From NCBI GenBank assembly GCA_009738435.1, contig CP046522.1, forward strand, positions 1,643,249-1,707,248: a stretch of 64,000 nt of DNA. The letters are read 5' to 3'. Positions 15,352 through 64,000 of this stretch are shown here, piece after piece. The stretch is from Clostridium bovifaecis. GTDB lineage: Bacteria > Bacillota > Clostridia > Clostridiales > Clostridiaceae. How positions within the stretch are numbered: position 1 is the first letter of the stretch; each line of letters opens with the position of its first letter. The notes under the pieces are model-generated. The model was not told the DNA's origin. It did not search any database and saw only the letters and a list, made by a program, of their open reading frames with translations. A program made the translations under genes and the position numbers.

Positions 15352-17273
15352 TTGATTAAAAAGGTATTTACATCAAAAACCTTAGAAGAATGTTTAAAAT
15401 TGGCAGCCTCCCAACTAAAGGTAAATAAAGAAAAGATAAAATATGAAGTAATAGAAGAGAAACATGGACTTTTCAAAAGAAAGGTTACTATTTCTGTCGA
15501 AGTAGAAGAGAAACTTAAAGAAAATAAAAATGGAAGTATAAAAGTACAAGATGGGAAAATCATAGTTAAAAATCCTAAAGAAGGTGGAAGAGAAGCTTAC
15601 ATAAAGCCATGTAATCAAATGAAAGTCTTGGTTGATGGAGTCGAAATCGAAAGTAAGAAAGAAGTGTTTGAAGATACTACTATTGAGCTAATATTTAATG
15701 AAAATACTGCCGAAAGAAGATTAAATATAAATATAAGTCCTGATAAAATGGGAGTGTACGTAAGCGTTCAGTATATTCCGCAAAATGTTTATACAATAAA
15801 GGACGCAGAAGAAAGCGCTGAATTGATTCCAGAGATAAAAATAAAAGAACAGATATTTCCTAAAACATATACTGTGGAAGAAATAAAGGAACAATTAAAT
15901 TTGAGTGGAGTTAAATTTGGCATACTGGAAGACGCTTTAAAAGACTTAACTGAATTGAAGGATGTAGACAACCTATTAATTGCAAAAGGAGAAGAAGCGG
16001 TTGATGGCATAGATGATCTAATGGACTTAGGATTTGACTTAGAGGATGATAAGAAACTAGTAGAGGATAAGAAAGGTAGGATAGATTATAAGAGCATAGG
16101 ACATGTTAAAACAGTAAAAAAAGGTGATGTCTTAGCCGTAAGAATAGAAGGACGAGAAGGAAAAGATGGGATAGATGTAAAAGGTGGTATAAAAAGGCAC
16201 AAAACAGCTAAAAGGATTATAACCGAAGCTGGAGAAGGCTGCGAACTTAAAGATGAAAATACTGTAATTGCCTCAAGAGAAGGGAAGCCTTCTATTAAAG
16301 GAAATATAGTTAGTGTGTATGAAATTCATAAAGTGGACAATGATGTAGATATCAAGACTGGCAATATCGATTTTGTAGGAGATGTTGTAGTTTATGGAAA
16401 TGTAAAAGAAGGAATGGAAGTAAAAGCTGGGCATGACCTTATTATAAATAAGAACGTGGAGCATGCAAAGCTATATTCAAGAGAGAATATGACGGTATTT
16501 GGGAATGTAATAAATTCAAATCTTAGTGCTGGTGGAGAAGATATAGCTAAGCTCAATAAATTAAAAATTTTAGATAGCTTAAACGCAGCTGTTTTAGAGT
16601 TAATTGGTACAGTTGATCATATAAAGAAATTCAATCTCTTAGGTAAAGCAGTTCAAGATGGAGAGATTATAAAAGTTCTTGTTGAAAATAAATTTAAATT
16701 TATAACACCCTTATGTGATGATTTTATAAAAAAGGTATCTATAGATGCCAATAATGAGGAGAAAAGGTTAGCTAGTGCATTAAGAGAAAGTTTAATAGGA
16801 CTTGCTCCTCTGCAAATTAAAGATGCTTCTGAGCTTAATATTTTAATAAAAAAATAGAAAAGGTTGTGCAATTAGTTAAAGGCTCTTTAGAAGTACCAGT
16901 AAATGCAAAGATAAGTTATTGTCAAGATTCAATTATAAGTAGTTCAGGGAATATAATAATTACTGGTAAAGGAGAGTACGTGTCCAAGATAACTGCCCAT
17001 GGAAGTGTAGAGTTTGAGACACCAGGAAGTTTAGCAAGAGGTGGAGTTATAAAGGCAAAAGATGAAATAAAGTGTAAGAAGGTAGGTAGCGAAGGCGGAG
17101 TATCGACTAAGCTTATTGTAGAGGAAAAAGGTCATATATGGGTAGATACTGCTTATCAAAATACCTGCTTTGTTATAGGAAAAAAGGAATACACCTTAGA
17201 AGTTGCAAGTCGAGATGTTCATGTGTTTTTAAATGATGAAGGAGAATTAATAGTAGATAAGTTTGTATTATAG
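15352..17273 (+). pseudogene. fapA: FapA (DUF342) flagellar assembly/polymer-associated protein, split by a frameshift
   Basis: Two adjacent frames make one FapA. The first (15352-16857) holds the Jag-N-like start and the DUF342 core with repeated beta-helix turns such as GDVVVYGNVKEGMEVKAGHDLIINKNVEHAKLY (split across its middle here by no stop). The second (to 17273) holds the rest of the beta helix. They meet at a run of seven A (16848-16854), where the zero frame reads ATA-AAA-AAA-TAG. A shift of -1 there, or one extra A, joins them without loss. This heptamer, A AAA AAA, is a canonical -1 slippage site directly before the stop. It may therefore be a mutation, a sequencing error, or recoding. 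The start is the TTG at 15352, 9 bases after GGGAG. Confidence 0.78.
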
Positions 17274-17286
17274 GAGGATGAGAAAA

Positions 17287-17675
17287 ATGAACGAAAAGGA
17301 TATTAAGGTACTAATATTTAGTATAAATGATCAGTATTATGCTACAGATATTATGGAAGTAGAAAGAATTCTAGGATATGAGGTTCCAACGAAACTACCT
17401 GATTCACCAGAATTTATAGAAGGTGTGATTAATTACGAAGGAAATATTTACCTATAATGAGTTTAGCAAAAAGGTTTAATATTCCATATAATAAAGCAAA
17501 GGAAGAGGCTAAAATTATTGTAGCAAAACAAGAAGGTAGTAAAATAGGTATAATTGTAGACGTTGTTTCAGAGGTTTGTGATGTAAAAGCAAGCAATATA
17601 GAGGAAGCTCCAGAAATAGTAGCAGGAATATCAAAACGCTATATAAAGGGTCTTATAAAGTTAAATAAAAAATAA
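17287..17675 (+). pseudogene. cheW: Chemotaxis adaptor CheW, split by a frameshift
   Basis: CheW couples receptors to CheA. The first frame (17287-17457) ends in FIEGVINYEGNIYL then stop. The second (to 17675) resumes with SLAKRFNIPY and carries the rest of the SH3-like fold, ending in RYIKGLIKLNKK. One extra T in the TTT at 17447-17449 restores the expected reading EGNILPIMSLAKRF. The ATG at 17287 is chosen because AGGAGG ends about 9 bases upstream. A second, intact cheW lies at 23133, so loss of this copy need not abolish chemotaxis. Confidence 0.8.
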
Positions 17676-17747
17676 TCATTTTTTTAAATCTGGCTACGGT
17701 TTTAACCCAAGAAGAAAAAGAATTTATTTTAAAGTAAGGTGTATTAT

Positions 17748-18236: not shown

Positions 18237-18251
18237 TGGAGTGATATTATC

Positions 18252-19313: not shown

Positions 19314-19316
19314 CAT

Positions 19317-20084: not shown

Positions 20085-20096
20085 GGAGGGAAAAGT

Positions 20097-22139: not shown

Positions 22140-22741
22140 ATGGGTTACCTAGATATGACACCTATGCAGCTAGATGCACTAAGGGAAGTTGGGAATATTG
22201 GAGCTGGTAACGCAGCAACTGCTATGTCTCAGTTGTTAAACAAAAAATTGACATGACAGTGCCTGCAGTTAATATTGTACCCTTTGATGAAGTTTTTTCT
22301 GGAGAAGGGGCAGAAAGAGTTGTTATAGGTATCATTGTAAGAGTGCTTGGTGATACACCAGGTAATATACTATTTGTCCTTGAAAAAGATACAGCAGATG
22401 AAATTATAAAAGCTTTAATAGGAGAAGAGTCAGAACAAATGACGGAGATGGGAAGCTCTGTCCTCTGCGAAATTGGGAATATAATAGCTTCTTCATATAT
22501 GAATTCTATTGCTAAATTTACTAACTTAGTCATAACTCCTTCAGTGCCTGCTGTAAGTTATGATATGTTAGGAGCTATATTATCTACTACTTTTATTGAA
22601 TCAGGACAATTTGATGAACAGGTTCTTGATTTGGAAACTAGATTTTTGCAAAACAAACACGAAGAAATCAGTGGACATTTTTATTACATTCCAATGCCTG
22701 GCTCATTGGAGAAAATACTAAATACATTGGGAGTAAATTAA
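22140..22741 (+). pseudogene. cheC: CheY-P phosphatase CheC, split by a frameshift
   Basis: CheC dephosphorylates CheY-P and binds CheD. The first frame starts at ATG 22140 after AAGGAGGAGTTTAT and reads REVGNIGAGNAATAMSQLLNKK, then hits TGA at 22254. The second frame continues from TVPAVNIVPFDEV. One extra A in the six-A run (22242-22247) joins them as NKKIDMTVP. The joined protein has the exact CheC motif E16-x2-N19-x22-P42, and a second copy in CEIGNIIASSYMNSIAK, which supports the reconstruction. Expected length is about 200 residues. Confidence 0.82.
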
Positions 22742-27205: not shown

Positions 27206-29157
27206 GTGTCAGGTTTATTTGCAACCTTTAATGTAGGAAAAAGAGGACTATTTGCCCAGCAAAGAGCCATAGACGTTACTTCACATAATATAGCTAATGC
27301 GAATACAGAAGGATATTCAAGACAAAGAGCTATAATGGAGACTACGAGACCTTTTGGTATGCCTTCTATGAACAATCAAGTAGGGCCAGGACAAATTGGG
27401 ACAGGGGTAGATGTAGCATCTATCCAAAGAGTTAGAGATAGTTTTATGGATTTTCAAGTTAGAAGAGAGACAAGTACTCTCGGCCAATATGAAGCTAGAG
27501 ATAAATTTATAAGTGAAATAGAAAGTATATTTAATGAGCCTTCTGACACAGGATTATCTACACTCATCGGGAAGTTTTTTGATTCTTGGGAGCAGTTATC
27601 AAAGCAGGCAGAAACCTCAAACGCAAGAACGGTTGTGGCGCAGCAGTCAGCAGCATTAGCTGATGCATTAAATCATACTTATAATCAACTTACAGAGGTA
27701 AAAAAGAATGCACAAGATTCAATAAAACAATCTGTTTTTGATGCTAATGCAATGCTTAACAGAATAGATAAGTTAAATCAGCAAATTATAAGTGTTAAAG
27801 TATCAGGTATGGAACCTAATGATTTAATGGACCAAAGAGATTTACTTTTGGATGAATTGAGTCAAAAGTTTAATATAACTGTAGAAGATGATAAGTTTTA
27901 CTCCATAAATTTAAAGCCAGATTACACACTTACCCCAGAACAAAGTGGAAGAGAAATACAGAATCCTCTGCTTGTTAGAAAAAATCCAAATGATGATGTG
28001 AGAAGGTTTTCTTATGTTAAAAGTATAAAGCCGGAAGAGCCAACAGTAGAAGGCCAAGCCGGAACATATACGATTACATATCTAAAAAATGGAGATAAGG
28101 ATAAGGAAGCTACTTTTAAAGTGCAAATAGGAAGTAGTGAAGAATATAAGAGATTAGAACAATGCAGAGTCATATGGTCACAAAGCAATAAGAATAATGA
28201 TTCAAAAGATGGATTGGCTATTGATGTAAATGGCGGAGAAATATCCGAGGGAGAAGTAGTAAACTTTAAAGATTTAGCTCTTTTCGAACTAGCAAGTGAT
28301 AACAATAGAGGAGAGTTTAAAGGCTTTATGTCAGTTCAAAAGGATGTAGATCAGTATATAGATCAGCTTAATAAGCTTGCAAAGGCGTTAGCTTTTTCAG
28401 TTAATGCTATTCATAGTGGTGTTACTGATGCTGCAGCGGGCAATGGAAATGTAGATAAGGATTACATGCCTTTCTTTGTAAATTCTGAGATAGCTAATGG
28501 GTTATACGTACTTAAAGATTCTAAGCACATACTTTATGATGGAGTTACATATACTGATCCGGATGCTTCAAGTGACGTAAAATATGCTTTAGAAAAAGTA
28601 TTAAATTCTGAAGTTGAAATAACAGCAGGAAACATATCGATAAATAAACAAATTTTAGATGATGTAATGCAAATAAAGACGAGAGTAAATGATGATAGTT
28701 ATGGACTTGCATCAGAGAATGAAGAAGATGGTGAAAAGGATGGTAAAAGAGCTTTAGCTATTGCTTCCCTTCGTAATACCTTACTTCAAATTCAGAACAT
28801 TGATATTACTTCTACTAGCAGAAAAACATTTATGGATATGATGGGAGGATTACAAGCAGATAGTGACCTTGGTCTTGAGACTATAAAAAGTGACATTAAA
28901 GGTATGAAAATTGACAGCTACTTTAAAGACACGATTGACAAACTTGGTATACATGGACAAGAAGCGCAAAGAATCGTAAAAATCAAGGAGTTCTTCTTCA
29001 AGGCTTCCAAGAAAGAAGAGATTCTATTTCAGGAGTATCTCTAGATGAGGAAATGGCCAACCTAATTCAATTTCAACATGCTTATCAAGCTAACAGCAAA
29101 ATTATAGCTACCGTAGATGAACTTTTGGATGTTGTAGTTAATGGACTTAAGAGATAA
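27206..29157 (+). pseudogene. flgK: Hook-associated protein 1 (FlgK), split by a frameshift near the C-terminus
   Basis: The first frame (27206-29044) has the FlgK N-terminus (FATFNVGKRGLFAQQRAID, HNIANANTEGYSRQ) and nearly the whole protein. It leaves frame at a five-A run (28978-28982): the remaining 45 residues in the neighbouring frame read SISGVSLDEEMANLIQF and NSKIIATVDELLDVVVNGL, the expected FlgK C-terminal D0 helix. One extra A restores the junction VKNQGVLLQGFQERRD. FlgK and FlgL join hook and filament, and the C-terminal helix is essential for this, so the written frame would not give a working protein. The start is GTG at 27206 after AGAGGTG. Confidence 0.83.
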
Positions 29158-35384: not shown

Positions 35385-35722
35385 ATGGATCTAAAAAATT
35401 TGATTTCCCAATATAAAGATATAACTATTAATATTATTTCAAGTTTAGAAAAATAGAGTATGATAATGTTGAGAAATTGTTAAATAAAAGACAAGAAATA
35501 ATTAATGAATTAGCTTCTTTAAGTTACTCAAGTGAAGAATTTAAAGAAGTAGTTAGAGATATTAATTTGTTAGAATTAAATAAAAAGGCTGTAAACTTAA
35601 TTAGTAAGAATAGATTAGAGTTAAGAAATAAGATGAATTCTATAGCTAAAGGAAAAGCTGCTAGAAAAAGTTATGATAGTAATTTTTATGAGAGTATAAA
35701 AAAATTTTCTAAAAAAGTGTAA
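35385..35722 (+). pseudogene. fliT: FliT-like flagellar chaperone, split by a frameshift
   Basis: The first frame from ATG 35385 reads MDLKNLISQYKDITINIISS, LEK, then TAG at 35454. The second frame, in the same register as the 35477-35722 segment, reads IEYDNVEKLLNKRQEIINEL and onward. One extra A in the five-A run before the stop joins them as SLEKIEYDNVEKLL. The result is about 112 residues, helical, with the YDNVEKLLNKRQEII pattern seen in short Firmicute FliT-like chaperones downstream of fliD. Identification rests on position and helical character, so the gene name is tentative. The stop TAA is also the -35 region of the flagellin promoter. Confidence 0.65.
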
Positions 35723-37702: not shown

Positions 37703-37745
37703 AAAAATACGTTATTGTATGAATATAAATTTAGGAGTGATTTTC

Positions 37746-39621
37746 ATGGTTAATAACAATGTAGAAATTTTAAATAGAATAGGATACGGTAAAGAACAGA
37801 TTGACGGAAAAACTTTTAAGTTAGAGTTTAGTAGAGATAATATGAAAACATTTCAATATAAATGTAATGATAGTAAAGAAATATACATAAATAGTATATA
37901 CAATACTCATAAAGAAATAGATAACTTGTTAAAAGACATAGATTTTGATAAGGATAACTTATTTATAGTTTATGGAATAGGAATGGGATATCACATAAAA
38001 GAAATATATAATAGAATGACTAAGTTTAGTTATATTCTAGTAATTGAAAAAGACAAAGATATCTTATCAACATATATGGAGCATAATGATTTTTCGGAAC
38101 TTATAAATCCTAATATTTTATTTTTCTTTGGTAGTGAAGAAGAGATTATAGAAAACATACATACTAATATAACGAGAATAAACATTATGGGGGCTGCTGT
38201 AAACAGCGTAAGTATAATACCTTCTGCCTATAAACAAATTTATGGGATGAGATATATATAATTTAAATAAAGAGATAATTGAAATAATAAAACATGCTTT
38301 TTTTCTAATAGGAAATGATGTCCAGGACACTATTGATGGAGTTGAAAATTATGTTAAGAATATTAAGGAGTTACTAAAAAGCCCTAGTTTAGATTGTGTC
38401 AAGGATAAATATAAAAATAGGCCAGCAGTTATTGTTAGTGCAGGTCCTTCGTTAGATAAAAATATACATTTACTAAAAGAAGCAGAAGGGAAAGCTGTAA
38501 TATTAGCTACTGATGCGGTGTTAGGTACTCTAAAAAGACATAATATTATACCAGATGCTGTCTTTACGGTCGAAAGAATATGGAAAACCTACGAGGCCTT
38601 CTATAAAAATAAGGAATTTGATGAAAGAATAGTTTTTGTAGGACCAGCAGTTATAAGGAGTGAAATATTAACAGTTTTGAAGAAAAATAAAAAGTTGCTG
38701 TTTTTAAAACATGGGGAAGGTCCTAGCATGTGGATTGGTAAAAATATAATGAAAGAAGATAAATACTTAACAACAGGTGCTTCTTGTGCACACACAGCTC
38801 TTTCATTTTCTAAATATATAGGAGCTGATCCTATAATATTTATAGGGCAAGATTTAGCATACACTAAAGAAGGAATAACACATGGAAAAGATGTAGAGAT
38901 AAAACAAAAAACTGAATTGAAAAATAATAGACTTTGGGTAGATGGGGTAAATGGTGAAAAGCTTCCTACTAATTTGGCACTGAAAAATTTTCTTATTTGG
39001 TTCGAAAAAGTAATTGCTAAAGATAAAAGTGGAAGAGAATATATAGATTGTACTGAAGGGGGAGCATATAAAAAAGGTACAATAATAATGAAACTACAAG
39101 AGGCAATTAATAGCTATTGCACTGAAGGCATAACAAGATTAAGTGAATTAATTCCTGAAAAAGACAAGCTAGATGAAAGATATATTAATTCAGTTATAGA
39201 ATTAAGAAATTTAAAAAAAGATATTAATAAATTGATGAAAAAAGCTAAGAAACATAATAGAAAGCTAGATAGATTTCTAAAGAAAGGAAATTTTAATGCT
39301 GAAGGGCTAAATTCAGATTATATTGACAAAGGTCTGAAACTCGCCAAATCAAACTTTATAGTAGAACATGCTATATTCAATAATCCTTTATTTGTTGGAT
39401 TATTTCAGCCAGTTATAACATCAGCTGTTGTAGAGGTGAGAAAACTTAGCTTTAATATAACTCCAGAGATAATAGAGAAAAATATGAAAATACAGATGAG
39501 AATGAATAAGAATATTATGTTAGGGTGTAAAAAAATGATCACTTTAATTTCAGAACTAGTAAATAAAATTATTAAAGATGAAGATTATATAAGTTTATTA
39601 AAAAATAACGGAGGTAAATAA
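37746..39621 (+). pseudogene. Maf-type motility accessory factor (DUF115/MptE-like flagellin glycosylation protein), split by a frameshift
   Basis: Maf proteins transfer nonulosonic acids such as pseudaminic acid to flagellin. The first frame starts at ATG 37746 (AGGAGTG upstream) and has the N-terminal domain with IVYGIGMGYHIKEI. It stops at 38259. The frame that continues is open from the same point: NKEIIEIIKHAFFLIG leads into the DUF115 core PAVIVSAGPSLDKNI, then IIFIGQDLAYTKEGITHGKD and a helical C-terminus. One TA unit added to the TATATATA tract at 38253-38260 gives MRYIYNLNKEII; removal of one base also works. Together about 625 residues, normal for Maf. A second, intact Maf homologue lies at 42847. 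Confidence 0.78.
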
Positions 39622-39960
39622 ATGAATAATAAAATAGAGATATTAAATACTGCTCAGGAATATATTAACTCTTTAAAAGGAGGTATAATACAAACGGTTA
39701 ATTATTACCAGAATGGGGAGGAAAGTAAGGCTTCAGATTTTATTATTAAGATATGTGATGGAATTGAATGGTTAGCGAAAGCTTTAACATTGACACATGA
39801 TGTAATTAATTCAGAAGAAGATCTAAACCAACTAAATAGAAAGCTTGAGGAAATAGTAGAAGCTTTTGAAAATGAAGATTATATATTAATAAGTGATTTA
39901 TTAGAGTATGAGATTATGTCTATCTTAGATGAAATCCAAGCTAATATAAAACAAATATAG
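39622..39960 (+). CDS. Small helical protein of unknown function in the glycosylation island
   Basis: This 112-residue, acidic and predicted all-helical protein has no signal peptide or membrane segment and I do not recognise its family. Its ATG comes immediately after the stop of maf1 (39621) and follows GGAGGTAAATA, so it is translated as part of the same operon. The next gene is a glycosyltransferase. Conserved-looking features are GGIIQTVNYYQNGEESKASD and ICDGIEWLAKAL. A role as a partner of the flagellin glycosylation enzymes is a guess from position. Confidence 0.7.
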   Translation: MNNKIEILNTAQEYINSLKGGIIQTVNYYQNGEESKASDFIIKICDGIEWLAKALTLTHDVINSEEDLNQLNRKLEEIVEAFENEDYILISDLLEYEIMSILDEIQANIKQI

Positions 39961-39995
39961 AGCAATTAGATTTGTTACTTGAAGGAATGGTAGTA

Positions 39996-41583
39996 ATGGA
40001 AAAAAATATTATCTTAGAGAAAGCAAAAGATGAAAATTGGACATGTAAAGTAAATGTTAACGGCAAATGGAAATATATACTCTAAGTATAATCCTATAAA
40101 AATAATAGAAAATATTTCTAAAAGTTATAATTATATAATTCTTGGTATAGGGTTAGGATATGAGCTTAAGCAAGTTATTGAAAATACAGAGGGCATAGTT
40201 TACGTCATTGATAGAGATAAAACCTATTATAATTTAATAATTGAGTTAAAACATTTAACTGAAATTATAAATAACCCTAGAGTTAAGTTTTTATTTGGAG
40301 ATGAATATAAAAATATTGATTTAAAAGAAATTAATAGTTACAAAATATTTAATAATGAAAATTTAACTCAGATAGACGTTACTTATTTTTTTAAAGTTAT
40401 TAAGTTTTTTAGTATAAAGAAAAGTAGCAAACATAAAATCAGCTTTTACGAACATATAACCATTGCAGATGATTGTATTGAAGCATTAAAAAATATAGGA
40501 TATGAAGTAGTAAAAATGAAGTTTTCAACTAAGGATAAAATGATTGAAAATGTAATGCAAGAGTGTCCTGACTATATCTTTACAATTAATTTAAGTGAAA
40601 AAGTCTCAGAAATTAGTAATATACTATCAATACCTTATATAGCATGGGTTGTGGATGTACCTGCGTATTCCTTGTATAGTGATTTGTTAGAGAGAAAAAA
40701 TATACTTGCTTTTACTTGTGATAGCAGCATGGCTAGAGAACTTAAGGATAAAGGATTTAAAAATATTCATTATATGCCTGTTGCTGTGAATACTAATAGG
40801 TTAGATAATATAAAGCTTGAATCAGATGATTTACAAAAATATTGTTGCGATGTAAGTTTTTTAGGTACAACAGGCATAGAAAATGAGTTTAATAAGTATA
40901 TGAGTAATTTATTAAGTAAAGAAACCATTGAAAAAATTGATGAAATTTTTTATAAACAATTATTAAATCAAAGTCAGTTCATAATAAAAGACATGATTGA
41001 TAATGAATTAATTGATAGAATTCAACTAGAAACGGGATATAAAATAGCTTCTGAAACATATCTTTCTAAAAAGGCAAAGCTTGCTTTTCTGCTTGGCAGA
41101 AAATTAAATGAAATTCAAAGAATAAATATGGTTAAAAAGTTGTCAGAAATATATAATTTTTATGTTTATGGAGATGAAAACTGGAGTGAAATAGATTCTA
41201 AATACATTCAGTATAGAGGTTATGCTGAGCACTTTGTGGAGATGCCAAAAGTATTTAAGTGTTCGAAAGTTAATATAAATTATACAAGAATTTATGTTGA
41301 AGCAGGATTACCTATGAGAGTTTTTGATATCTTAGGAAGCAAAGGTTTTTTAGCAACTAATTACAAAGAAGATGTCTCTAAATATTTTGTTGATGGAAAA
41401 GATTTGGTGGTATACAGAGATGCTAAAGATTTAGTAGAAATCATCAATTATTATCTAAATAATGAAAAAGAAAGACAAACAATAATTCTAAATGGTTATG
41501 ATAAAGTCAAGAAATATCATACTTATGAAAAAAGGCTAAAAGAAATGATGAATATTTCTAACAGTTATTTTAAATTAGAATAA
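39996..41583 (+). pseudogene. CgeB-like glycosyltransferase (DUF3880 plus GT family 1-type C-terminus), split by a frameshift
   Basis: A short first frame from ATG 39996 reads MEKNIILEKAKDENWTCKVN and stops at 40083. The long frame continues with SKYNPIKIIENISK, IILGIGLGYELKQVI (same domain as the Maf N-terminus), then a DUF3880 segment (PYIAWVVDVPAYSLYSDLL, FTCDSSMARELKDKGF, YMPVAVNTNRL) and a transferase tail (MRVFDILGSKGFLATNYKED). Adding one TA to the TATATA tract (40073-40078) joins them as KWKYIYSKYNP. The long frame alone has an ATG at 40054 but lacks a ribosome site. The enzyme probably extends the flagellar glycan; donor and acceptor are unknown. Confidence 0.72.
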
Positions 41584-44415: not shown

Positions 44416-44416
44416 A

Positions 44417-44515
44417 AGTGAAAAGGGCAAATTACGGGAAGCTGTGAGACGCAAAGCCAAGGGTCTGAACCACAACGATTGAGATTTTTGTAGATGGTAG
44501 CCGGTTGCCACAGAA
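44417..44515 (+). ncRNA. Cyclic di-GMP-I riboswitch (GEMM-I)
   Basis: The aptamer consensus is clear: GGGCAAA (44424-44430), a hairpin with a GAAG loop, then GACGCAAAGCCA (44448-44459) and GGGTCTGAACC, a variable stem, and GGTAGCCGGTTGCCA (44497-44511). These match the conserved G-rich strand, the GACGCAAAGCC core and the GGUAGCxGGUUxCC receptor of known GEMM-I aptamers such as Vc2. It lies upstream of a large secreted Ig-repeat protein, a classic target for c-di-GMP control of adhesion. A clear terminator is not visible directly after the aptamer, so the mode (ON or OFF) is undecided. Confidence 0.9.
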
Positions 44516-49177: not shown

Positions 49178-49501
49178 ATGTCTACGAAATTAGATAATGC
49201 AACCTGGGAGGAATATGTTAATAAGTTTGATGCATGTAAAGGTGAATTAACTGTGAAAGATTTTTGTATAGAAAACAAGCTTTCCAAAGGCCAATTTTAT
49301 TATCATAAAAGAAGGTTAGAGAAAGGAAGTTCCTCAACAGTTTTTCATTCCATTTCATTAACTAAGCAAGATAATATAGAAGAGAATATTGCTGCTTCAA
49401 AAGAAGTGAAAATTACCGTAGGTAATGCCAATATAACTATTCCTGTTAGCGAAGCTACCTTAATTACATCAATAGTTAGGGAGCTAGCCAACAGATGCTA
49501 A
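49178..49501 (+). CDS. tnpA: IS66 family accessory protein TnpA
   Basis: This 107-residue IS66 OrfA protein has an N-terminal helix-turn-helix-like region (WEEYVNKFDACKGELTVKDF, CIENKLSKGQFYYHKRRLEK) and a less conserved C-terminal part. GGGAGGATAAATT precedes the ATG. Its end overlaps the tnpB start by 7 bases, as usual in IS66 elements. It is needed with TnpB and TnpC for transposition. Confidence 0.9.
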   Translation: MSTKLDNATWEEYVNKFDACKGELTVKDFCIENKLSKGQFYYHKRRLEKGSSSTVFHSISLTKQDNIEENIAASKEVKITVGNANITIPVSEATLITSIVRELANRC

Positions 49502-49845
49502 ATATAGATAAGGTAGAAAAAGTCTACCTTGCCTGCGGCTACACGGATTTGAGAAAAAGTATTGATGGATTAGTTATGATAGTGGAGAATCAATTTAAGC
49601 TAGATCCTTTTGATAAAGCACTATTTGTTTTTTGTAACAAACAAATGGATAAGTTAAAAATACTTCATTTTGATGAAGGATTTTGGTTATATTATCATCG
49701 TTTAGAAGCTAATCGCTTCAAATGGCCTGCTACTACGGAAGAAGCTTTAAAGGTAAATATTGAAGAATTACGTTGGCTTTTAAAAGGCTACGAAGTAAGA
49801 ACAAAGTCTAAGTTTAAACCTATAAAACAAAGTAATTGTTTTTAA
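49495..49845 (+). CDS. tnpB: IS66 family accessory protein TnpB
   Basis: This 116-residue TnpB has the highly conserved IS66 OrfB signature: VYLACGYTDLRKSIDGL, LFVFCNKQMDKLKILHFDEG and FWLYYHRLEANRFKWP. The normal length and complete motifs indicate an intact gene. It is translationally coupled to tnpA. Not to be confused with the RNA-guided TnpB of IS605 elements. Two hairpins lie after the stop (CCCTTG...CAAGGG and TTTGATAT...ATATCAAA, 49861-49920), before tnpC. Confidence 0.95.
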   Translation: MLNIDKVEKVYLACGYTDLRKSIDGLVMIVENQFKLDPFDKALFVFCNKQMDKLKILHFDEGFWLYYHRLEANRFKWPATTEEALKVNIEELRWLLKGYEVRTKSKFKPIKQSNCF

Positions 49846-49934
49846 AATATATTAGCAAAACCCTTGGAAGTCCTTTATTTTCAAGGGTTTATTTGATATA
49901 ATTAATATATCAAATAAATGCTGAAGAGGTAATT

Positions 49935-51557
49935 ATGGATCACGAAATTTTAACAAATGAACTTGATGAAAAAACAAAGTCATTAATTGAAAAAGTTGAA
50001 AAGATGGAAAATGAAATTAATGAAAAAGATGAAGAAATACGAAAGCTCAAAAATGAATTAGAGTTCTTAAAAGGTGTTATATCAGGTAAAAATAGAAAGA
50101 TATTTGGGGTATCTAGTGAACAAGTAGATGCAAACCAATTATCTCTTTTTAACGAGGCTGAAAAATTTAGTGATTCAAAAGTGGAAGAACCTACTTTAGA
50201 GGAAATTACATATAAAAGGGCTAAAAAAAGTAATTACACAGGCAAAAAAGATAATCTAGCAAACTTAGAAAGAGTTGTTATTGAGCATAAATTAGAAGGT
50301 GATGATCTTAACTGCAAAGAATGCGGTGAAGAATTAGTTGAAATTGGAGTTAAATCTAAAAAAGAAATAATAAGATATGTTCCAGCTAAACTTATAGTTG
50401 AAGAACATGTGATTTACAGCTACGCTTGTAAATCTTGCGAAAAAGAAACAGGCGAAAGTAATATAATTTCAGCAGAAGCTCCACAAACTATTTTTTATAA
50501 TAGTATGGCTTCTAATGAATTAGTTGCTCATACTCTTGTGCTTAAATATCAACATGCTATGCCGCTTTATAGGCAGGAAACTTACTTTGATATGATGGGA
50601 GCTACTCTTTCAAGGCAAACTCTATGTAACTGGACTATGTCCGCGGCGGAAGCCTTAGAGCCAATATACAAACATATGAAAAAGGAATTACTTAATAGGA
50701 AATATATTAATGCTGATGAAACTACTCTGAAAGTAATTAATGATAATGGCAAGGATTCTAAATCTAAAAAGTATATGTGGTTATATATGAGTAACATCAA
50801 TTCAAAGCCAGTAATTTTGTACGATTATCAAAGCACTAGATCAAGCTCATGCCCTAAAAATTTCTTAGGAGATTTCAAAGGATTTCTCCAAACGGATGGT
50901 TATAATGGGTATAACTCCGTTAGCAACGCTACGCGTGTATATTGTTTAGCCCATATAAGAAGATACTTCCACAATATAATAGTTGGCTTAAATGAAGAAG
51001 CCCTAAAAAGTTCTAGAGGAGTAATAGGGTTTAATTATTGTGAGCAAATTTATAAACTTGAAAAAGAGCTTAGAGAAGCTTATTCAAGTGATGAAAATTA
51101 TTATGATATCAGATTTAAAGTAAGAGCTGAGAAACTAGCTCCGCTTATAGATAACTTTATTGACTATGTTGAAAGAGAAATCAAATATGCTCTTCCAAGA
51201 AGTCCTTTAGGTAAGGCACTTGATTATGCTAAAAAGCATTTACCAGGATTAAAAAATGTGCTATTAGATGGTTCTTTAGAAGTGGACAATAATGCTGCTG
51301 AAAGAGCAATTAAACCTTTTGTTATAGGTCGTAAGAACTTCCTTTTCGCCAATACTGCTAAAGGCGCAGCCTCAAGTGCTAATATTTATAGCATTGTTGA
51401 AACCGCCAAGGCTAATAAACTTGTTGTGGAAAGGTACTTAGTTCATCTATTTAATAATCTATTAAAAATAGATATATCTAATAGCGAAAGCTTAGAGGAT
51501 CTTATGCCTTGGTCTAATAAGATTCCTGAAAATATGAAAATTAAAGATAGGAAATAA
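49935..51557 (+). CDS. tnpC: IS66 family DDE transposase TnpC
   Basis: This 540-residue IS66 transposase has an N-terminal coiled coil (about 10-50), the IS66 zinc-binding segment (NCKECGEELVEIGVK, CKSCEKE), and the DDE core with YINADETTLKV, FLQTDGYNGYN and the C-terminal VDNNAAERAIKPFVIGRKNF. No frameshift or internal stop is present, so the element is potentially active. AGAGGTAATT precedes the ATG. Confidence 0.95.
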   Translation: MDHEILTNELDEKTKSLIEKVEKMENEINEKDEEIRKLKNELEFLKGVISGKNRKIFGVSSEQVDANQLSLFNEAEKFSDSKVEEPTLEEITYKRAKKSNYTGKKDNLANLERVVIEHKLEGDDLNCKECGEELVEIGVKSKKEIIRYVPAKLIVEEHVIYSYACKSCEKETGESNIISAEAPQTIFYNSMASNELVAHTLVLKYQHAMPLYRQETYFDMMGATLSRQTLCNWTMSAAEALEPIYKHMKKELLNRKYINADETTLKVINDNGKDSKSKKYMWLYMSNINSKPVILYDYQSTRSSSCPKNFLGDFKGFLQTDGYNGYNSVSNATRVYCLAHIRRYFHNIIVGLNEEALKSSRGVIGFNYCEQIYKLEKELREAYSSDENYYDIRFKVRAEKLAPLIDNFIDYVEREIKYALPRSPLGKALDYAKKHLPGLKNVLLDGSLEVDNNAAERAIKPFVIGRKNFLFANTAKGAASSANIYSIVETAKANKLVVERYLVHLFNNLLKIDISNSESLEDLMPWSNKIPENMKIKDRK

Positions 51558-51828: not shown

Positions 51829-52887
51829 ATGTTAAATAATAAAACAATACTAGTAACTGGAGGGACAGGTTCTTTTGGTAAAAAATTTACAGAAATGGTT
51901 TTAAATCAATACAACCCTAAAAAAATAATAATTTATTCAAGGGATGAATTTAAGCAAGATGTAATGAAGAAAGAGTTTTCAATAAAATACTTAGATAAGG
52001 TAGGAAAGCTAAGATTTTTTATTGGTGATGTAAGAGATAAAGATAGATTGTATAGGGCTTTTGACGGCGTAGATTATGTAGTACATGCTGCTGCCATGAA
52101 GCAGGTACCAGCATGCGAGTATAATCCATTTGAGGCTATTTTAACTAATATACATGGTGCTAAGAATATTGTTGATGCAGCTATAGATAGAGGAGTAAAA
52201 AAGGTAGTTGCTTTATCTACTGATAAGGCAGTTAACCCAATAAACTTGTATGGTGGTACTAAATTAGTATCGGATAAGTTATTTATTGCAGCAAATGCTT
52301 ACAGTGCAGATAAAGGAACTATTTTCTCGGTAGTTAGATACGGAAATGTTGCAGGCAGCAGAGGGTCAGTTATACCATTTTTTAAAGATTTGATTGATAA
52401 TAATATAAAAGAACTTCCTATAACTGATTTTGAAATGACTAGATTCTGGATAACCTTAGAACAAGGTGTAGAATTAGTCTTTAAGGCTTTAGGAGAATCA
52501 AGGGGTGGAGAAACCTATATATCTAAAATACCATCCTTCAAAATAACAGATTTAGCTAAAGCTATGATAGATAATGTTGAGATGAAAGAAATTGGAATCA
52601 GAGAAGGTGAGAAGCTTCATGAGGTTATGGTAACTAGTGATGATTCAAGAACCACTTATGAATATGAAAAGCATTATATAGTATATCCAAACTTTGAATG
52701 GTGGAATTTTGATAAGCATTTTACTGCTGGTGGAAAGTTAATTAAAAGAGGCTTTGAATATAATTCTGGAAATAATACAGAATGGCTTACAATTGATGAT
52801 TTGAGGAGAGAAATGTTTAAATTAGGTTTATATGACGCATATAGAGTTAATGGAATAGATTTTGCTGAAGTTGCTATTACTAAATAA
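51829..52887 (+). CDS. pseB: UDP-N-acetylglucosamine 4,6-dehydratase (inverting) PseB
   Basis: This 352-residue extended SDR enzyme has the NAD-binding ILVTGGTGSFGKKFTE motif, YSRDEFKQ, the PseB/FlaA1-type HAAAMKQVPACEYNP sequence (methionine-lysine in the active site) and the ALSTDKAVNPINLYGGTK segment. The C-terminal FEYNSGNNTEWLTIDDLR tail is characteristic of PseB. It makes UDP-2-acetamido-2,6-dideoxy-beta-L-arabino-hexos-4-ulose, the first step to pseudaminic acid. GAGGAGAATTTAAT precedes the ATG. Downstream, the expected pseC is missing except for a short fragment. Confidence 0.95.
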   Translation: MLNNKTILVTGGTGSFGKKFTEMVLNQYNPKKIIIYSRDEFKQDVMKKEFSIKYLDKVGKLRFFIGDVRDKDRLYRAFDGVDYVVHAAAMKQVPACEYNPFEAILTNIHGAKNIVDAAIDRGVKKVVALSTDKAVNPINLYGGTKLVSDKLFIAANAYSADKGTIFSVVRYGNVAGSRGSVIPFFKDLIDNNIKELPITDFEMTRFWITLEQGVELVFKALGESRGGETYISKIPSFKITDLAKAMIDNVEMKEIGIREGEKLHEVMVTSDDSRTTYEYEKHYIVYPNFEWWNFDKHFTAGGKLIKRGFEYNSGNNTEWLTIDDLRREMFKLGLYDAYRVNGIDFAEVAITK

Positions 52888-52985
52888 GAAAGATAAATTA
52901 TAAAAGAATTAGTGTTAAAAGGTAGAAAACTTGTAAGAAAAGATTTAGATCATGCTTTAGGAAGTGAAGATAAAGTTAAATAAAA

Positions 52986-53036
52986 ATGAGTAGTGAAGAT
53001 ATTAATGATGTTACCGAAGCATTGAAAAAATTATAA
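52986..53036 (+). pseudogene. Remnant of the C-terminus of a DegT/PseC-type aminotransferase
   Basis: Between pseB and pseF, where pseC is normally encoded, only a 16-codon frame remains: MSSEDINDVTEALKKL then stop. That matches the usual end of DegT/DnrJ/EryC1 aminotransferases (S-x-E-D-x-x-x-V-x-E-A-L-K-K). The 100 bases before it (52888-52985) contain further coding-like but broken sequence (ELVLKGRKLVRKDLDHALG). The rest of the enzyme is gone. The match is short, so this is a hypothesis supported by synteny. Confidence 0.4.
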
Positions 53037-53058
53037 ATTATAAAAGGTAGTGATTAAT

Positions 53059-53800
53059 GTGAAGGTAGTTTGTATTGTACAAGCTAGAGTGGGATCAACT
53101 AGACTTCCAGGGAAAGTGCTAAAAAAGATTTGCGGAAAAACAGTATTAGAACACGATATTGATAGATTAAGAAGAGTAAAAAATAGATAAAATTGTAATA
53201 GCAACTACAATTTTAGAAAAAGATGATGCTATAGTAGAAGAAGCAAAAAGACTTGGAATAACCTATTATAGAGGTTCGGAAGAAGATGTGCTTTCTAGAT
53301 ACTATTATGCTGCGAAAGAAAATAATGCAGATGTAGTAGTGAGAGTTACAAGCGATTGTCCTTTAATAGATAGTGAAGTTAGTGAAAATATAATACAATA
53401 TTATTTAGATAATAGAGAATTATATGATTATGTAAGTAATACAATTGAAAGAACTTATCCAAGAGGATTAGATACAGAAATTTTTAGCTTTAAAGCACTT
53501 GAAAAGGCTTTTTTTGAAGCTAAAAGTGACAGAGATAGAGAACATGTTACCCCTTATATATGGGACAATCCTAAAACTTATAAATTATTTCATTATAAGA
53601 ATAGTAAGGATTATTCTCAATATAGATGGACTTTAGACACAGACGAAGACTTTAATTTAATATCTGTAATTTATAATCATTTGTATTTAAATAGCGGAAA
53701 CAAATTCAATATGGAAGATGTTTTAGATTTATATAAAAAATACCCTAAATTAGGAGAGATTAATAAGGATGTTAAGCAAAAAGAGGTAGGTAGAAAATAG
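53059..53800 (+). pseudogene. pseF: Cytidylyltransferase PseF/SpsF-like (CMP-sugar activation), split by a frameshift
   Basis: The first frame from GTG 53059 (AAAAGGTAGTG upstream) reads VVCIVQARVGSTRLPGKVL, the nucleotide-binding motif of the family, then runs into TAA at 53188. The downstream frame reads IVIATTILEKDDA, the active-site segment VVRVTSDCPLIDSEV, and TYPRGLDTEIFSFKALEKAF. Adding TA at AAAAAATAGAT (53179-53188) gives RRVKNIDKIVIATT; removing one A gives a slightly shorter join. The full protein is about 247 residues. In the pseudaminic acid pathway PseF makes CMP-Pse. The remaining downstream frame alone lacks the CTP-binding motif. Confidence 0.78.
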
Positions 53801-53802
53801 AC

Positions 53803-54405
53803 ATGAAAATACTTTTTTTAACTAACAATAGAATATCACATGGTCTATATAATTGGCTTAGAGAGAAAGGTGAGGATGTACTTATTTTTGAAGAAAAGCT
53901 TGAATTGGACAAAGTTAAGGAAATCAATCCTGATTTTATTATAAGCTATAATTATAGATATATAGTTAAAAAGGATATTATCCATTTTATGAATAATAGA
54001 ATTATAAATTTACATATATCATTATTGCCATGGAACAGAGGTGCCCACCCTAATGTTTGGGCATTCTTAGAAGAAACACCTAAAGGAGTTACAATACATG
54101 TTTTAGATGAAGGACTAGATACTGGAGATATTTTGTACCAAAAGCAGGTATATTTTGATGAACACGAGGAAACGTTAGCTTCCTCTTACGAAAAACTGCA
54201 TAGTGAAATACAAAAACTATTTACTGAAAACTGGGAAAATATTAAGGATTGGAATATAAGTCCTATATCACAGCCCCAAAATGGAACTAAGCATTTTGCT
54301 AAAGAATTTGAAAATGTAAGCGAAAAGTTAGGGCTAAATAACGATTGGAACATAAATATTATAAAACTTAAGAATAAATATAAGAAATATAAGACTATAA
54401 ATTGA
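53803..54405 (+). CDS. Formyltransferase-like enzyme (amino-sugar N-formyltransferase)
   Basis: This 200-residue protein has the formyltransferase catalytic triad region: NLHISLLPWNRGAHPNVWA (asparagine and histidine of the N-x-H-x-SLLP motif) and the aspartate in HVLDEGLDTGDIL. It is shorter than methionyl-tRNA formyltransferase and lacks its C-terminal tRNA-binding domain, as expected for sugar N-formyltransferases using N10-formyl-tetrahydrofolate. It occupies the place of the acetyltransferase PseH in the pse cluster, starting right after pseF. I infer that it formylates the 4-amino group of the altrosamine intermediate, giving a 7-N-formyl pseudaminic acid. Confidence 0.8.
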   Translation: MKILFLTNNRISHGLYNWLREKGEDVLIFEEKLELDKVKEINPDFIISYNYRYIVKKDIIHFMNNRIINLHISLLPWNRGAHPNVWAFLEETPKGVTIHVLDEGLDTGDILYQKQVYFDEHEETLASSYEKLHSEIQKLFTENWENIKDWNISPISQPQNGTKHFAKEFENVSEKLGLNNDWNINIIKLKNKYKKYKTIN

Positions 54406-54418
54406 GGAGTAGAAAATA

Positions 54419-55474
54419 GTGAGAAATAAATTTATTATAGAAGGTCGAGTAATAGATAATGATAGTCCAGTATTTGTTATAGCTGAAATTTCAGCAAATC
54501 ATAATGGAAGCTTTGAAAATGCAGTTAAAATTATAAAAGAAGCTAAAAAGGCAGGCGCAGATGCTATAAAGCTTCAAACTTATACAGCAAATACGATAAC
54601 CTTAGATTGCAATAACGAATATTTTCAAATTAAGCAAGGTACAATTTGGGACGGCACAACTTTGCATAAGCTATACCAAAAGGCATACACGCCTTGGGAA
54701 TGGCAACCTAAATTAAAAAAGGTTGCAGAAGAGGAGGGATTGGTTTGTTTTTCGTCTCCTTTTGATAAGACATCTGTAGATTTTCTAGAGAAAATGAATA
54801 TTCAAGCGTATAAAATAGCTTCTTTTGAAATTACAGACATACCTCTTATAGAATATGTAGCATCTAAAGGTAAGCCTATAATAATCTCCACTGGAATAGC
54901 TACTTTAGCTGATATTGAGGAAGCCATTAATGCTTGTAAAAGGATGGGGAATAATCAAGTAATTCTGCTTAAGTGCACAAGTTCATATCCAGCACCTATG
55001 GAGGAAGTAAATTTAAATACTATACCAAACATGAGGGAAACTTTTGAAACTTTAGTAGGGTTATCTGATCATACTTTAGGGCAAGAAGTTGCTATAGCCT
55101 CTGTAGCCTTAGGTGCTAAGGTGATAGAGAAACATTTTATATTAGACAGATCAGAAGGTGGTCCGGACTCAGCTTTTTCTATGGAACCGGAAGAATTTAA
55201 AAATATGGTTAATTCTATAAGAAATGTAGAGAAAGCGCTAGGAACGGTTAAATATGATTTAAGCGAAAAGACAAAAAAAAGTAGACGGTTGTTTTCTCGT
55301 TCATTATTTATAATAAAAGAAGTAAAAAAGGGAGAAATATTCACTGAGGGTAACGTTAAATCTATAAGACCGGGCTTAGGCATGCATACTAGATATTATA
55401 ATGATATTTTAGGGAAAAAGGCAAAAGTAGACATAGAAGAGGGAACACCATTAACGTGGGATTTAGTAGAATAA
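54419..55474 (+). CDS. pseI: Pseudaminic acid synthase
   Basis: This 351-residue NeuB-family synthase condenses a 6-deoxy-altrose-type sugar with phosphoenolpyruvate. The TIM barrel (about 15-270) has FVIAEISANHNGSFENAVK, KLQTYTANTITLDC, and the PseI-like LHKLYQKAYTPWEWQP, while IIISTGIATLADIEEAI and ITDIPLIEYVASKGKP follow. The C-terminal SAF/antifreeze domain includes RPGLGMHTRYYNDILGKKA. The IWDGTTLHKLYQKAYTPWEW pattern favours PseI over sialic or legionaminic acid synthases. The start is GTG at 54419, after GAGGAGTAGAAAATA. Intact. Confidence 0.93.
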   Translation: MRNKFIIEGRVIDNDSPVFVIAEISANHNGSFENAVKIIKEAKKAGADAIKLQTYTANTITLDCNNEYFQIKQGTIWDGTTLHKLYQKAYTPWEWQPKLKKVAEEEGLVCFSSPFDKTSVDFLEKMNIQAYKIASFEITDIPLIEYVASKGKPIIISTGIATLADIEEAINACKRMGNNQVILLKCTSSYPAPMEEVNLNTIPNMRETFETLVGLSDHTLGQEVAIASVALGAKVIEKHFILDRSEGGPDSAFSMEPEEFKNMVNSIRNVEKALGTVKYDLSEKTKKSRRLFSRSLFIIKEVKKGEIFTEGNVKSIRPGLGMHTRYYNDILGKKAKVDIEEGTPLTWDLVE

Positions 55475-55493
55475 TTTTAAAGGATGAAAACTT

Positions 55494-56524
55494 ATGAAGA
55501 TAGCAATAAGAGCAGATGGCGGAAGTAAAATAGGAATGGGGCATATAATGAGGACGTTAGTTTTAGCTAAAGAATTAGCTAAAACTAACGAGGTTTTTTA
55601 TATTTGTAGAGTAGATAAACCATTAACAGGAAAATATAGTCCAGGTATTAAGAAAATTAAATTAGAGGGGTTTAATGTAATAGGTGTTGATGAAGATAGT
55701 ATTATAGAAGAATTAAAAAGAGTAACTGCAGACTGTTTGATAACAGATAGTTATGATGTTGATGAATATTACTTTAATGAAACAAAACAGTTATTTAATA
55801 AGACTGGATATATAGATGATATGAATATGTACTACTTTAATGTTGATTTCCTAATAAATCAAAACATTAATGCTAAGGATTTAGTTTATAGAGTTAATAA
55901 GAATACAAAGTTACTTTTAGGAACTGATTATATAATGCTAAGAGAAGAATTTAGGCATGCTTTAAAAAAAATATTAAGGAAGAGGTAAAAGACATACTAA
56001 TTACTTTAGGTGGAGCAGATCCTTTTAATGTAACAGAGTTAATTTTAAATTATATTCATGGATTAAAATATACATATCATGTGGTAGTAGGACCTTCTTT
56101 TGGGAGTGTCAATACATTAAAGATTTTTGAAGCAGAAAATGAAAATATAAAATTATACTTTAATGCTAATATGATTGAACTTATGGAAAGATGTGATATT
56201 GCTATATCTGCATGTGGTAGTACATTGTATGAATTGTCAGCATGTGGAGTACCTACACTAGGAATAGTTATGGCTGATAATCAATTAGGGATAAATAATA
56301 GCATGAAAAAAAATAATCTTATTTTAGATTTAGGATGGTATGATAATTTAAATAGAAAAAAGTTTATTAAAAGATTTAATTTGTTGTTAAAGAATAAGAC
56401 ACTTAGAGAGAATATGTCTCAAGCTCAGCAAAGTTTTATAAATAAAAATGGTGCATTAAAATTAGCAAATAGAATTAATGAACTAATAAAATCACGATAC
56501 AGACATTCTTATTTTACAAGTTGA
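55494..56524 (+). pseudogene. pseG: UDP-sugar hydrolase PseG, split by a frameshift
   Basis: PseG removes UDP from UDP-2,4-diacylamido-trideoxy-altropyranose. The first frame (55494-55988) has IRADGGSKIGMGHIMRTLVL and ADCLITDSYDVDEYYF. The second has DILITLGGADPFNVTELI, the donor-site ISACGSTLYELSACGVPTLG and a C-terminal helix. They meet at an eight-A run (55964-55971), where the zero frame is TTA-AAA-AAA-ATA; one extra A joins them as ALKKNIKEEVKDILITLGG. Total about 343 residues, normal for PseG. The zero-frame context is again A AAA AAA, a -1 slippage heptamer, but the stop is 15 bases downstream. Confidence 0.8.
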
Positions 56525-58456: not shown

Positions 58457-58475
58457 AAATTAATAAAGAAGGGAT

Positions 58476-58622: not shown

Positions 58623-58657
58623 ATGTATAGCGAATTTAATATGGGGGGGCAAGGCTA

Positions 58658-58987: not shown

Positions 58988-59009
58988 CATAATTTTGATT
59001 TTATTATGA

Positions 59010-59945: not shown

Positions 59946-59946
59946 T

Positions 59947-60378: not shown

Positions 60379-60388
60379 GGGAATGTAT

Positions 60389-60700: not shown

Positions 60701-60717
60701 TTAGGAGTGCTAAATAA

Positions 60718-62283: not shown

Positions 62284-62291
62284 TGACAGGA

Positions 62292-63305
62292 ATGGCAAAG
62301 GAAAATAAACTAACAGGTGTACAAAAAGCGGCCATTCTATTTATAACTCTAGGACCAGAAGTGGCTTCAGCTATTGTAAAAAGGATGTCAGATTCGGAAA
62401 TACAGAAAATAACCTACGAAATAGCTAATACTACGGCAGTAAAACAGGAGCAAAGATCCGAGATACTGCAGGAATTCGTGGAAATGAATAAAGCAAAGGA
62501 TTATATATTAGAAGGTGGATTTGAATATGCTAGAAATCTTCTAGGCAAGGCTCTTGGAAGTCAAAGGGCAAGGGAAATTTTAGAAAAGGTAACTGAAGCT
62601 ACCCAGCAATACAGGCCTTTTGCCATTGCAAGAAAGGCAGATGCTCACCAGCTTTTAAATGTAATATCTAATGAACATCCTCAGACTATTGCACTGATAC
62701 TATGCTATTTGCAGCCAGATAAGGCGGCACAGATTATTGCTGAATTGCCTGAAGATGTACAGACAGAAGTAGCTTTTAGAATAGCTTCTATGGATAATAC
62801 CTCTCCTATGGTTATAAAAGAAATAGAAAAGGTATTAAATAGTAAATTATCTTCTGTAGTTAGAACAGATATGACAACTTTAGGCGGAGTAGACACTCTT
62901 GTTGACATATTAAATCAAGTTGATAGAACCACTGAGAAAAATATTACAGAAGGCTTGGAAAGAGAAGATCCAGACTTGGCAGAAAAAATCAAACAATCTA
63001 TGTTTGTATTCGAGGACATTATTACTTTGGACGACGTTTCAATACAGAGAGTTTTAAGAGAAATAGAATCAAAAGATCTTGCTCTTGCATTAAAAGGATG
63101 TTCAGAAGAAGTTGCCAATGCTATATTCAAAAATCAATCTAAGAGAGCTGCAGCTTCATTGAAAGAGGATATAGAATTCTTAGGACCTGTAAGACTTATG
63201 GATGTTGAAAAAGCTCAACAGAAGATTGTTAGCATCATAAGAAGGCTTGAAGATGCAGGAGAAATAATCCTATCAAGAGGTGGAGAAGATGCTATCATCG
63301 TATAA
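62292..63305 (+). CDS. fliG: Flagellar motor switch protein FliG
   Basis: This 337-residue C-ring protein couples FliF to the stator. The N-terminal domain has LTGVQKAAILFITLGPEVAS, the middle domain carries the EHPQ motif (SNEHPQTIALILCYL), and the C-terminal torque helix includes FVFEDIITLDDVSIQRVLRE. I choose ATG 62292: GAGGTGAT lies about 8 bases upstream and the protein then starts MAKENKLTGVQ, like other Firmicute FliG. In-frame GTG 62280 and ATG 62283 overlap that ribosome site. Confidence 0.95.
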   Translation: MAKENKLTGVQKAAILFITLGPEVASAIVKRMSDSEIQKITYEIANTTAVKQEQRSEILQEFVEMNKAKDYILEGGFEYARNLLGKALGSQRAREILEKVTEATQQYRPFAIARKADAHQLLNVISNEHPQTIALILCYLQPDKAAQIIAELPEDVQTEVAFRIASMDNTSPMVIKEIEKVLNSKLSSVVRTDMTTLGGVDTLVDILNQVDRTTEKNITEGLEREDPDLAEKIKQSMFVFEDIITLDDVSIQRVLREIESKDLALALKGCSEEVANAIFKNQSKRAAASLKEDIEFLGPVRLMDVEKAQQKIVSIIRRLEDAGEIILSRGGEDAIIV

Positions 63306-64000
63306 AGTCATAAAAAATAATAGTGTTGTAGAAGAAGGTAAAAAAGAGATAAATACAGAATATGCTGCCGAAAAAAATAAGGAATTAGGAGAAAAAAATG
63401 CTAAAGATTTCATAGAAAGCTATGAAGTCTTAGCAAGAACCATGCTAGAAAATGCAAGAAGGCAAAGTGATAAAATTTTAGCTGCCGCCTATAGTGAAGC
63501 TCAAGATATTGAGCAAGAGGCATATAAAAAGGGATATGAAGAAGGAAAGAAGGCAGGCTATGAAGCCGGAATTGCTAAAGCAAATGAATACTATGAAGAA
63601 ATGAAAAATAGAGCAAAATATGAAGCTGAAACTCTAGGGAAAAATGCTGAGGCGCTTTTATATGGCGCAAAACAGGAATATTTAAGATATATGGAAGAAA
63701 AGCAGGGAGAAGCAAAAAAACTGATTTTATATATTAGAAAGCATTTTAAAGAAGGAAGTTGATTGCAAAGAAGGAATAAGCAGTATGATTTTGGATGCTA
63801 TAGAAATAGCGCAAAAGTCTAAAACCCTAATAGTAAAGTGTAATAACAGCTATATAGAAGATATAAAATCCAAGTTAGAAGCATGGAAAAATCGAAGTGT
63901 TTTTAGAGGAGAGATCTTCGTAGTAACAGATGATAATCTAGAAGAAGGAACTGCAGAAATTCAAAGAGAAAATGGCAAAGTTATAGTAAGTGTTTCAGAA
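63289..64000 (+). pseudogene. fliH: Flagellar assembly protein FliH, split by a frameshift and cut by the window end
   Basis: FliH regulates the export ATPase FliI. ATG 63289 overlaps the end of fliG. The first frame has the long N-terminal coiled coil (SYEVLARTMLENARRQSDKI, KKGYEEGKKAGYEAGIAKAN with GxxxG-like pattern) and stops at 63760. The conserved C-terminal domain continues in the next frame to the window end: SSMILDAIEIAQKSKTLIVK, SNNSYIEDI-like NSYIEDIKSKLEAWKNRSVF and EIQRENGKVIVSVSE. Adding one TA to the TATATA tract (63728-63733) gives LILYILESILKKEV, the expected junction. The true 3' end is outside the window. Confidence 0.8.

What the first reader, a model, noticed from the sequence alone, without database searches (positions are those of the whole stretch)
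15352..64000. Ten motility/glycosylation genes are each split by one small indel, while no complete housekeeping gene is
Seen in sequence: fapA, cheW (first copy), cheC, flgK, fliT, maf1, the CgeB-like transferase, pseF, pseG and fliH each need one small indel to become full length, and in each case the joined protein reads as expected for the family (cheC regains the exact E-x2-N-x22-P motif). The eleven complete genes between 514 and 15145, about 13 kb, have none. All ten events are net losses consistent with one repeat unit missing from a short A/T or TA tract. Three explanations: undercalled tracts in a long-read or pyrosequencing assembly; a motility regulon decaying in a non-motile or mismatch-repair-deficient strain; or reversible switching. 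The skew is suggestive, but a chance distribution of assembly errors is not excluded.
Basis: partly seen in the sequence, partly recalled or inferred. Interest (0 to 1): 0.75.

Follow-up and report, generated by a model that had tools for sequence, protein, structure and literature searches.

The report
Genome-wide indels, not motility decay
Several flagellar and sugar-coating genes are split in this Clostridium genome record, but so are 17 of 281 genes tested elsewhere in it, and intact, otherwise identical copies of two of its split genes exist in other sequence records, so the splits are most likely sequencing errors rather than a motility system being lost or switched.

Summary
The split genes are there, but they are not special to motility. 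With one detector and one filter, frame breaks were found in 4 of 34 testable genes of window 15250-64000, 0 of 12 in 1-15250, and 17 of 281 in 59 further 20-kb stretches of the same genome, against 1 of 153 in two relatives. Broken genes elsewhere include smc, RNase III, clpP and a cysteine desulfurase. The flagellar genes just beyond the window break at the genome average (1 of 15); motility versus rest is not significant (4/48 vs 16/262, P = 0.53). 19 of 27 break zones hold an A/T run or TA tract of 6 or more (3.8 expected). mutL is also split in this record, which would suggest a mutator, but MutL and FlgK that match it at every residue outside the break and the start codon are whole on other contigs. 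Most likely: residual indel errors in a long-read assembly. Against it: about 57 kb of core genes carry no break (P = 0.02, set chosen after seeing), and no close whole copy of maf was found, so a real mutator strain is not excluded.

The parts
1..15250. Block of 12 testable genes, each in one frame (a HisS-type synthetase; other names such as AspS and GlyA are recalled)
   Evidence: 0 breaks in 12 genes, 12.8 kb
15343..16857 (+). fapA, first piece (Jag_N, FapA_N, start of FapA domain)
16866..17273 (+). fapA, second piece in another frame (FapA domain continues)
17263..17457 (+). cheW first copy, first piece (CheW 2-49 of 138)
17457..17675 (+). cheW first copy, second piece (CheW 53-121 of 138); a third short piece follows in another frame to 17734
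22140..22244 (+). cheC, first piece (35 residues, 91% to a relative)
22247..22741 (+). cheC, second piece in another frame
27206..29044 (+). flgK, first piece; a whole copy, identical over the matched residues apart from the start codon, is on another contig (P0121)
28978..29154 (+). flgK, second piece in another frame (59 of 59 residues as in P0121)
35477..35722 (+). fliT-like gene lacking its start in this frame
37719..38261 (+). maf glycosyltransferase, first piece (Maf_flag10_N)
38251..39621 (+). maf glycosyltransferase, second piece in another frame; best whole relative in the listing is 72% identical
40054..41583 (+). CgeB-like glycosyltransferase; upstream open frame 39945-40085 without homology support
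53044..53190 (+). pseF, first open frame (resemblance read by eye)
53180..53800 (+). pseF, second piece (CTP_transf_3 from profile position 76)
55494..55988 (+). pseG, first open frame (no Pfam match)
55955..56524 (+). pseG, second piece (Glyco_tran_28_C)
63280..63762 (+). fliH-like gene, first piece (name from position and a weak HrpE/FliH match)
63725..64000 (+). fliH-like gene, second piece in another frame, runs off the window

Best explanation
The split genes are most likely residual insertion/deletion errors of a long-read genome assembly: frame breaks occur in many parts of this genome record, in housekeeping as well as motility genes, and cluster beside short A/T and TA tracts. In such assemblies the consensus caller would drop a base or a TA pair in low-complexity A/T sequence, and short-read polishing would have been absent or incomplete (inferred; no reads were available). 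The excess seen in this window would then be chance plus selection of the window by a reader who noticed it. Shown: breaks across the genome sample, their tract context, the low rate in two relatives, and whole, otherwise identical MutL and FlgK in other records. Inferred: that the sequencing, not biology, made them.
For: Breaks in 17 of 281 genes outside the window, in 15 of the 54 stretches with a testable gene, against 1 of 153 genes in relatives G006 and G005 by the same detector (Fisher P = 0.005). The intact relatives name the broken genes: clpP, smc, RNase III, cysteine desulfurase, carbamate kinase, HydE, FlhF, a DnaD-domain protein and a triple-tyrosine-motif protein above the family cut-off; SpoVD/PBP-type, NuoF family, ornithine carbamoyltransferase (reference itself a fragment of a broken G006 gene), EtfB, YtvI-like, an ABC transporter and a histidine kinase below it; one of no family. 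Conserved genes are hit too: 4 of 93 in the most conserved third, 8 of 94 and 5 of 94 in the others. 19 of 27 break zones hold an A/T run or a TA tract of 6 or more, 3.8 expected. Long A/T runs are thinned: runs of 8 or more per run of 7 are 0.19 here, 0.29 in G006, 0.28 in G005, 0.22 in named relatives, though this genome is also a little less AT-rich. MutL (616 aa, contig of 11,473 bases) and FlgK (650 aa, contig of 13,043 bases) are whole elsewhere and differ from this record only at the break and in how the start codon is read. Completeness is 94.9 against 98-100 in its genus. Published nanopore-only assemblies carried 151-5298 pseudogenes against 12-136 in the true genomes (PMC8011154, passages); deletion errors sat mainly at homopolymers, most often A and T (PMC12007338, passages).
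Against: 32 core translation, transcription, replication and secretion loci, picked by eye, hold no break in about 57 kb, where 3.8 are expected (P = 0.02; set chosen after seeing). Three small-subunit rRNA copies are identical. 8 of 27 break zones hold neither tract, and runs of exactly 8 show 0 breaks in 27 tracts. No close whole copy of maf is in the listing, and the best hit is this record's own 455-aa piece. The shortage of long TA tracts is weak. The sequencing platform of this record is not known to me.
Confidence: 0.8

Rival explanations
1. The breaks are real: the sequenced culture would be a mismatch-repair-deficient mutator, with mutL off, that has accumulated slippage frameshifts through its genome except in essential genes.
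For: mutL is split inside its N-terminal ATPase region in this record, at an uninterrupted run of 14 A, the longest A/T run in 1.24 Mb of sample; breaks sit at mono- and dinucleotide tracts; about 57 kb of core genes are spared.
Against: An otherwise identical MutL is whole on another contig, and there its lysine stretch is not a pure run, so the long run here looks like a collapsed low-complexity stretch, not a slipped contingency tract. smc, RNase III and clpP are broken. TA tracts of 6 break about as often as A/T runs of 7 (5 of 311 vs 3 of 158), which by recall is not the spectrum of MutL loss. MutS is whole.
Confidence: 0.12
2. Reversible phase variation of surface and motility genes at short tracts.
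For: maf, pseF and pseG are surface-glycan genes, and surface structures including flagella are the usual targets of phase variation (PMC3711429, passages); no close whole maf was found.
Against: Tracts are short (longest A/T run 2-7, longest TA alternation 2-9 in 22 break zones) and the same kind of break hits smc, clpP and other cytoplasmic genes. FlgK is whole elsewhere.
Confidence: 0.05
3. Decay of the motility regulon in a non-motile strain.
For: At least six genes of one flagellar region are split.
Against: Motility genes do not exceed the rest (4 of 48 vs 16 of 262, P = 0.53). 14 of 15 testable genes next door are whole, among them FliI, FlgD, FlgE-type, MotA-type, FliP, FliQ, FliR-FlhB and FlhA; only FlhF is broken. 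In the window the pieces of the four broken genes keep 60-93% identity to relatives on either side of the break.
Confidence: 0.03

Closest known systems
Residual indel errors of nanopore- or PacBio-only bacterial assemblies (Homopolish, PMC8011154; Kastor, PMC12007338; passages read)
   Same: Many single small indels at homopolymers and low-complexity A/T sequence, false pseudogenes, reduced completeness score
   Different: TA alternations are as prominent here as homopolymers; platform and reads unknown
Mismatch-repair mutators (mutL or mutS loss; from general knowledge)
   Same: Tract-associated frameshifts across the genome; mutL itself split in the record
   Different: Whole, otherwise identical MutL exists in another record; housekeeping genes hit; MutS whole
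Phase-variable contingency loci by slipped-strand mispairing (PMC3711429, passages read)
   Same: Small indels in repeats, surface-glycan genes among the hit
   Different: Short tracts, and cytoplasmic housekeeping genes hit alike

Membership tests
Long-read assembly indel errors | Breaks spread over the whole genome regardless of function | tested here: met
   17 of 281 genes outside the window, in 15 of the 54 sampled stretches that hold a testable gene (59 sampled)
Long-read assembly indel errors | Breaks concentrated in homopolymers or low-complexity tracts | tested here: met
   19 of 27 against 3.8 expected
Long-read assembly indel errors | Essential genes hit as often as others | tested here: inconclusive
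   2 clearly broken of 53 family-search loci vs 17 of 281, P = 0.75 (FlhF is in both sets); but 0 in 32 core loci of about 57 kb, P = 0.02 (lengths compared by eye; one search list cut off)
Long-read assembly indel errors | Accurate reads of the same strain show the intact frame | not testable with these tools
   No reads held; a surrogate, whole MutL and FlgK otherwise identical to this record, is met for 2 of 3 genes looked up; not for maf
Mismatch-repair mutator | Loss of mutS or mutL in the organism | tested here: inconclusive
   MutS whole; mutL split in the record but whole in an otherwise identical record
Phase-variable contingency loci | Long hypermutable tract confined to surface or regulatory genes | tested here: not met
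   Tracts short, cytoplasmic genes hit alike
Motility-regulon decay | Break density in motility genes above the genome | tested here: not met
   4 of 48 vs 16 of 262, P = 0.53; by kilobase P = 0.15

The most novel reading that the evidence does not exclude
The record is correct and shows a living Clostridium mutator caught with mutL switched off, with roughly 6% of its genes frame-broken at A/T and TA tracts while core translation and transcription genes are kept clean by selection.
Probability: 0.1. Interest if true: 0.55.

Novelty: not a real feature. Interest (0 to 1): 0.15.

Why it matters
If the artefact reading is right, pseudogene calls, motility predictions and completeness scores drawn from this record are unreliable, and gene-loss claims from similar AT-rich long-read genomes need a genome-wide control of this kind. 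If the mutator reading were right, it would be a rare natural snapshot of mismatch-repair loss in an anaerobe.

Tried and rejected
Motility decay, phase variation and a mutL mutator were each tested and set aside as told above. The run of 14 A in mutL first looked like a contingency tract; the whole copy showed that its counterpart is not a pure run. A shortage of long TA tracts as a sign of undercalling was sought and is weak. Near-identical copies inside the sample were compared without a clear answer. Naming the organism was tried by paper search and failed; only the genus and one relative are placed: G006 has the contig length listed for Clostridium sp. MB40-C1. Rows dropped: between six of 23 outside breaks were removed by rule, five in spurious frames over rRNA genes (regions of 45% G+C or more; rRNA confirmed) and one resting on a piece under 25 residues. 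fliT was left out of the tract test (no second piece). The one control break, in G006, is ornithine carbamoyltransferase.

Full report
What was checked. The window is G000:C1:1643249-1707248 of a 3,727,984-base single contig. Among named genome contigs the nearest by CheA are Clostridium ganghwense and C. aestuarii.

The breaks. Proteins predicted in relatives (G006, G005 and other loci) were compared with the window and 59 further 20-kb stretches of the same genome (1.244 Mb in all). A break is one reference protein matching two collinear pieces in different frames, each of 25 residues or more and E 1e-4 or better. In the window fapA, cheW (two frame changes), cheC and flgK are found this way; maf and fliH by direct comparison. 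pseF, pseG and fliT are supported in part, the CgeB-like gene weakly.

Genome-wide control. Outside the window 17 of 281 genes are broken (0.67 per 10 kb), in window 15250-64000 4 of 34 (5 breaks), in window 1-15250 0 of 12, in G006 1 of 90 and in G005 0 of 63. Window region against outside: P = 0.26; outside against relatives: P = 0.005. With G006 and G005 references alone, motility genes (window plus the flagellar continuation in L128) give 4 of 48 against 16 of 262, P = 0.53, by kilobase P = 0.15; the continuation alone gives 1 of 15, FlhF. Ten of the 15 references for the continuation were scanned: nine are flagellar (FliI, FlgD, a TIGR02530 flagellar protein, FlgE-type, MotA-type, FliP, FliQ, FliR-FlhB, FlhA; FlgD, FlgE-type and MotA-type below the single-protein cut-offs) and one is a MinD-type ATPase.

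What is broken elsewhere. Intact relatives name the broken genes: clpP, smc, RNase III, cysteine desulfurase, carbamate kinase, HydE, FlhF, a DnaD-domain and a triple-tyrosine-motif protein above the family cut-offs; SpoVD/PBP-type, NuoF family, ornithine carbamoyltransferase, EtfB, YtvI-like, an ABC transporter and a histidine kinase below them; one without family. Family searches over the genus gave 53 loci in this genome by my count; two are clearly short (FlhF; a helicase remnant at 1225102-1225427) and two uncertain (a 588-aa GTPase at 2240116, a 1004-aa helicase at 852434); the list was cut off. A core subset of 32 loci, about 57 kb, has none (P = 0.02). This is the main point against the artefact reading.

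Context. Of 27 break zones, 9 hold an A/T run of 6 or more (2.3 expected) and 12 a TA tract of 6 or more (1.7 expected); 19 hold either (3.8 expected). A/T runs thin out with length faster than in relatives.

mutL. It had no reference in the detector and is not among the 281. The MutL C-terminal region sits in an open frame of 564 aa, against 598-664 in the 29 other genomes. The N-terminal piece (HATPase match) and the 564-aa frame overlap at a run of 14 A. This looked like the cause of a mutator. But a 616-aa MutL on another contig equals both pieces outside one residue of the break zone and the start codon, and a 650-aa FlgK on a further contig equals both flgK pieces apart from the start codon. 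The sources of these two records are not shown. For maf no such copy is in the listing.

Reading. Genome-wide, tract-bound small indels, hits in housekeeping genes, lowered completeness and whole otherwise identical copies fit the known error pattern of long-read assemblies: Homopolish reports 151-5298 pseudogenes in nanopore assemblies polished by Racon-Medaka against 12-136 in the true genomes (PMC8011154, passages), and Kastor reports pseudogenes falling from 23.3 to 5.6% after correction (PMC12007338, passages). The nearly perfect 285-base tandem array at 47152-49005 also suggests that long reads were used (inference). I put 0.8 on error, 0.12 on a real mutator, 0.05 on switching and 0.03 on motility decay.

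Noticed in passing
window 47152-49005 within ORF 44947-49050: A 1367-aa protein with a signal-like start (by eye) carries 6.5 copies of a 285-base unit (95 residues) at 99% match; no NCBIfam match.
   Followed up: partly
window 44416-44512: c-di-GMP-I riboswitch aptamer (Rfam RF01051) upstream of the repeat protein, which suggests c-di-GMP control of a surface protein inside the flagellar region.
   Followed up: no
window 5431-5614: 6S RNA (Rfam RF00013).
   Followed up: no
window 49178-51557: IS66-type element between the repeat protein and pseB; the transposase frame covers nearly the whole family model.
   Followed up: partly
window 51829-56524: Pseudaminic-acid genes pseB, pseF, a formyltransferase-like gene, pseI and pseG stand in a row; the gap between pseB and pseF leaves no room for a PseC aminotransferase gene, and none was searched for elsewhere.
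   Followed up: no
L130:14448 (genome about 1816448), L132:17056, L134:5744, L110:599: A/T runs of 12-14 occur four times in 1.24 Mb of this genome and none exceeds 10 in 1.6 Mb of G006 and G005; the one in mutL looks collapsed, the others were not resolved.
   Followed up: partly
G000:C1:1225102-1225427: Helicase remnant with several stops, perhaps a true pseudogene.
   Followed up: no
L141:2239-14065: Near-identical duplicated segments (97-98%) with many small gaps between copies; content not examined, could be rRNA.
   Followed up: no
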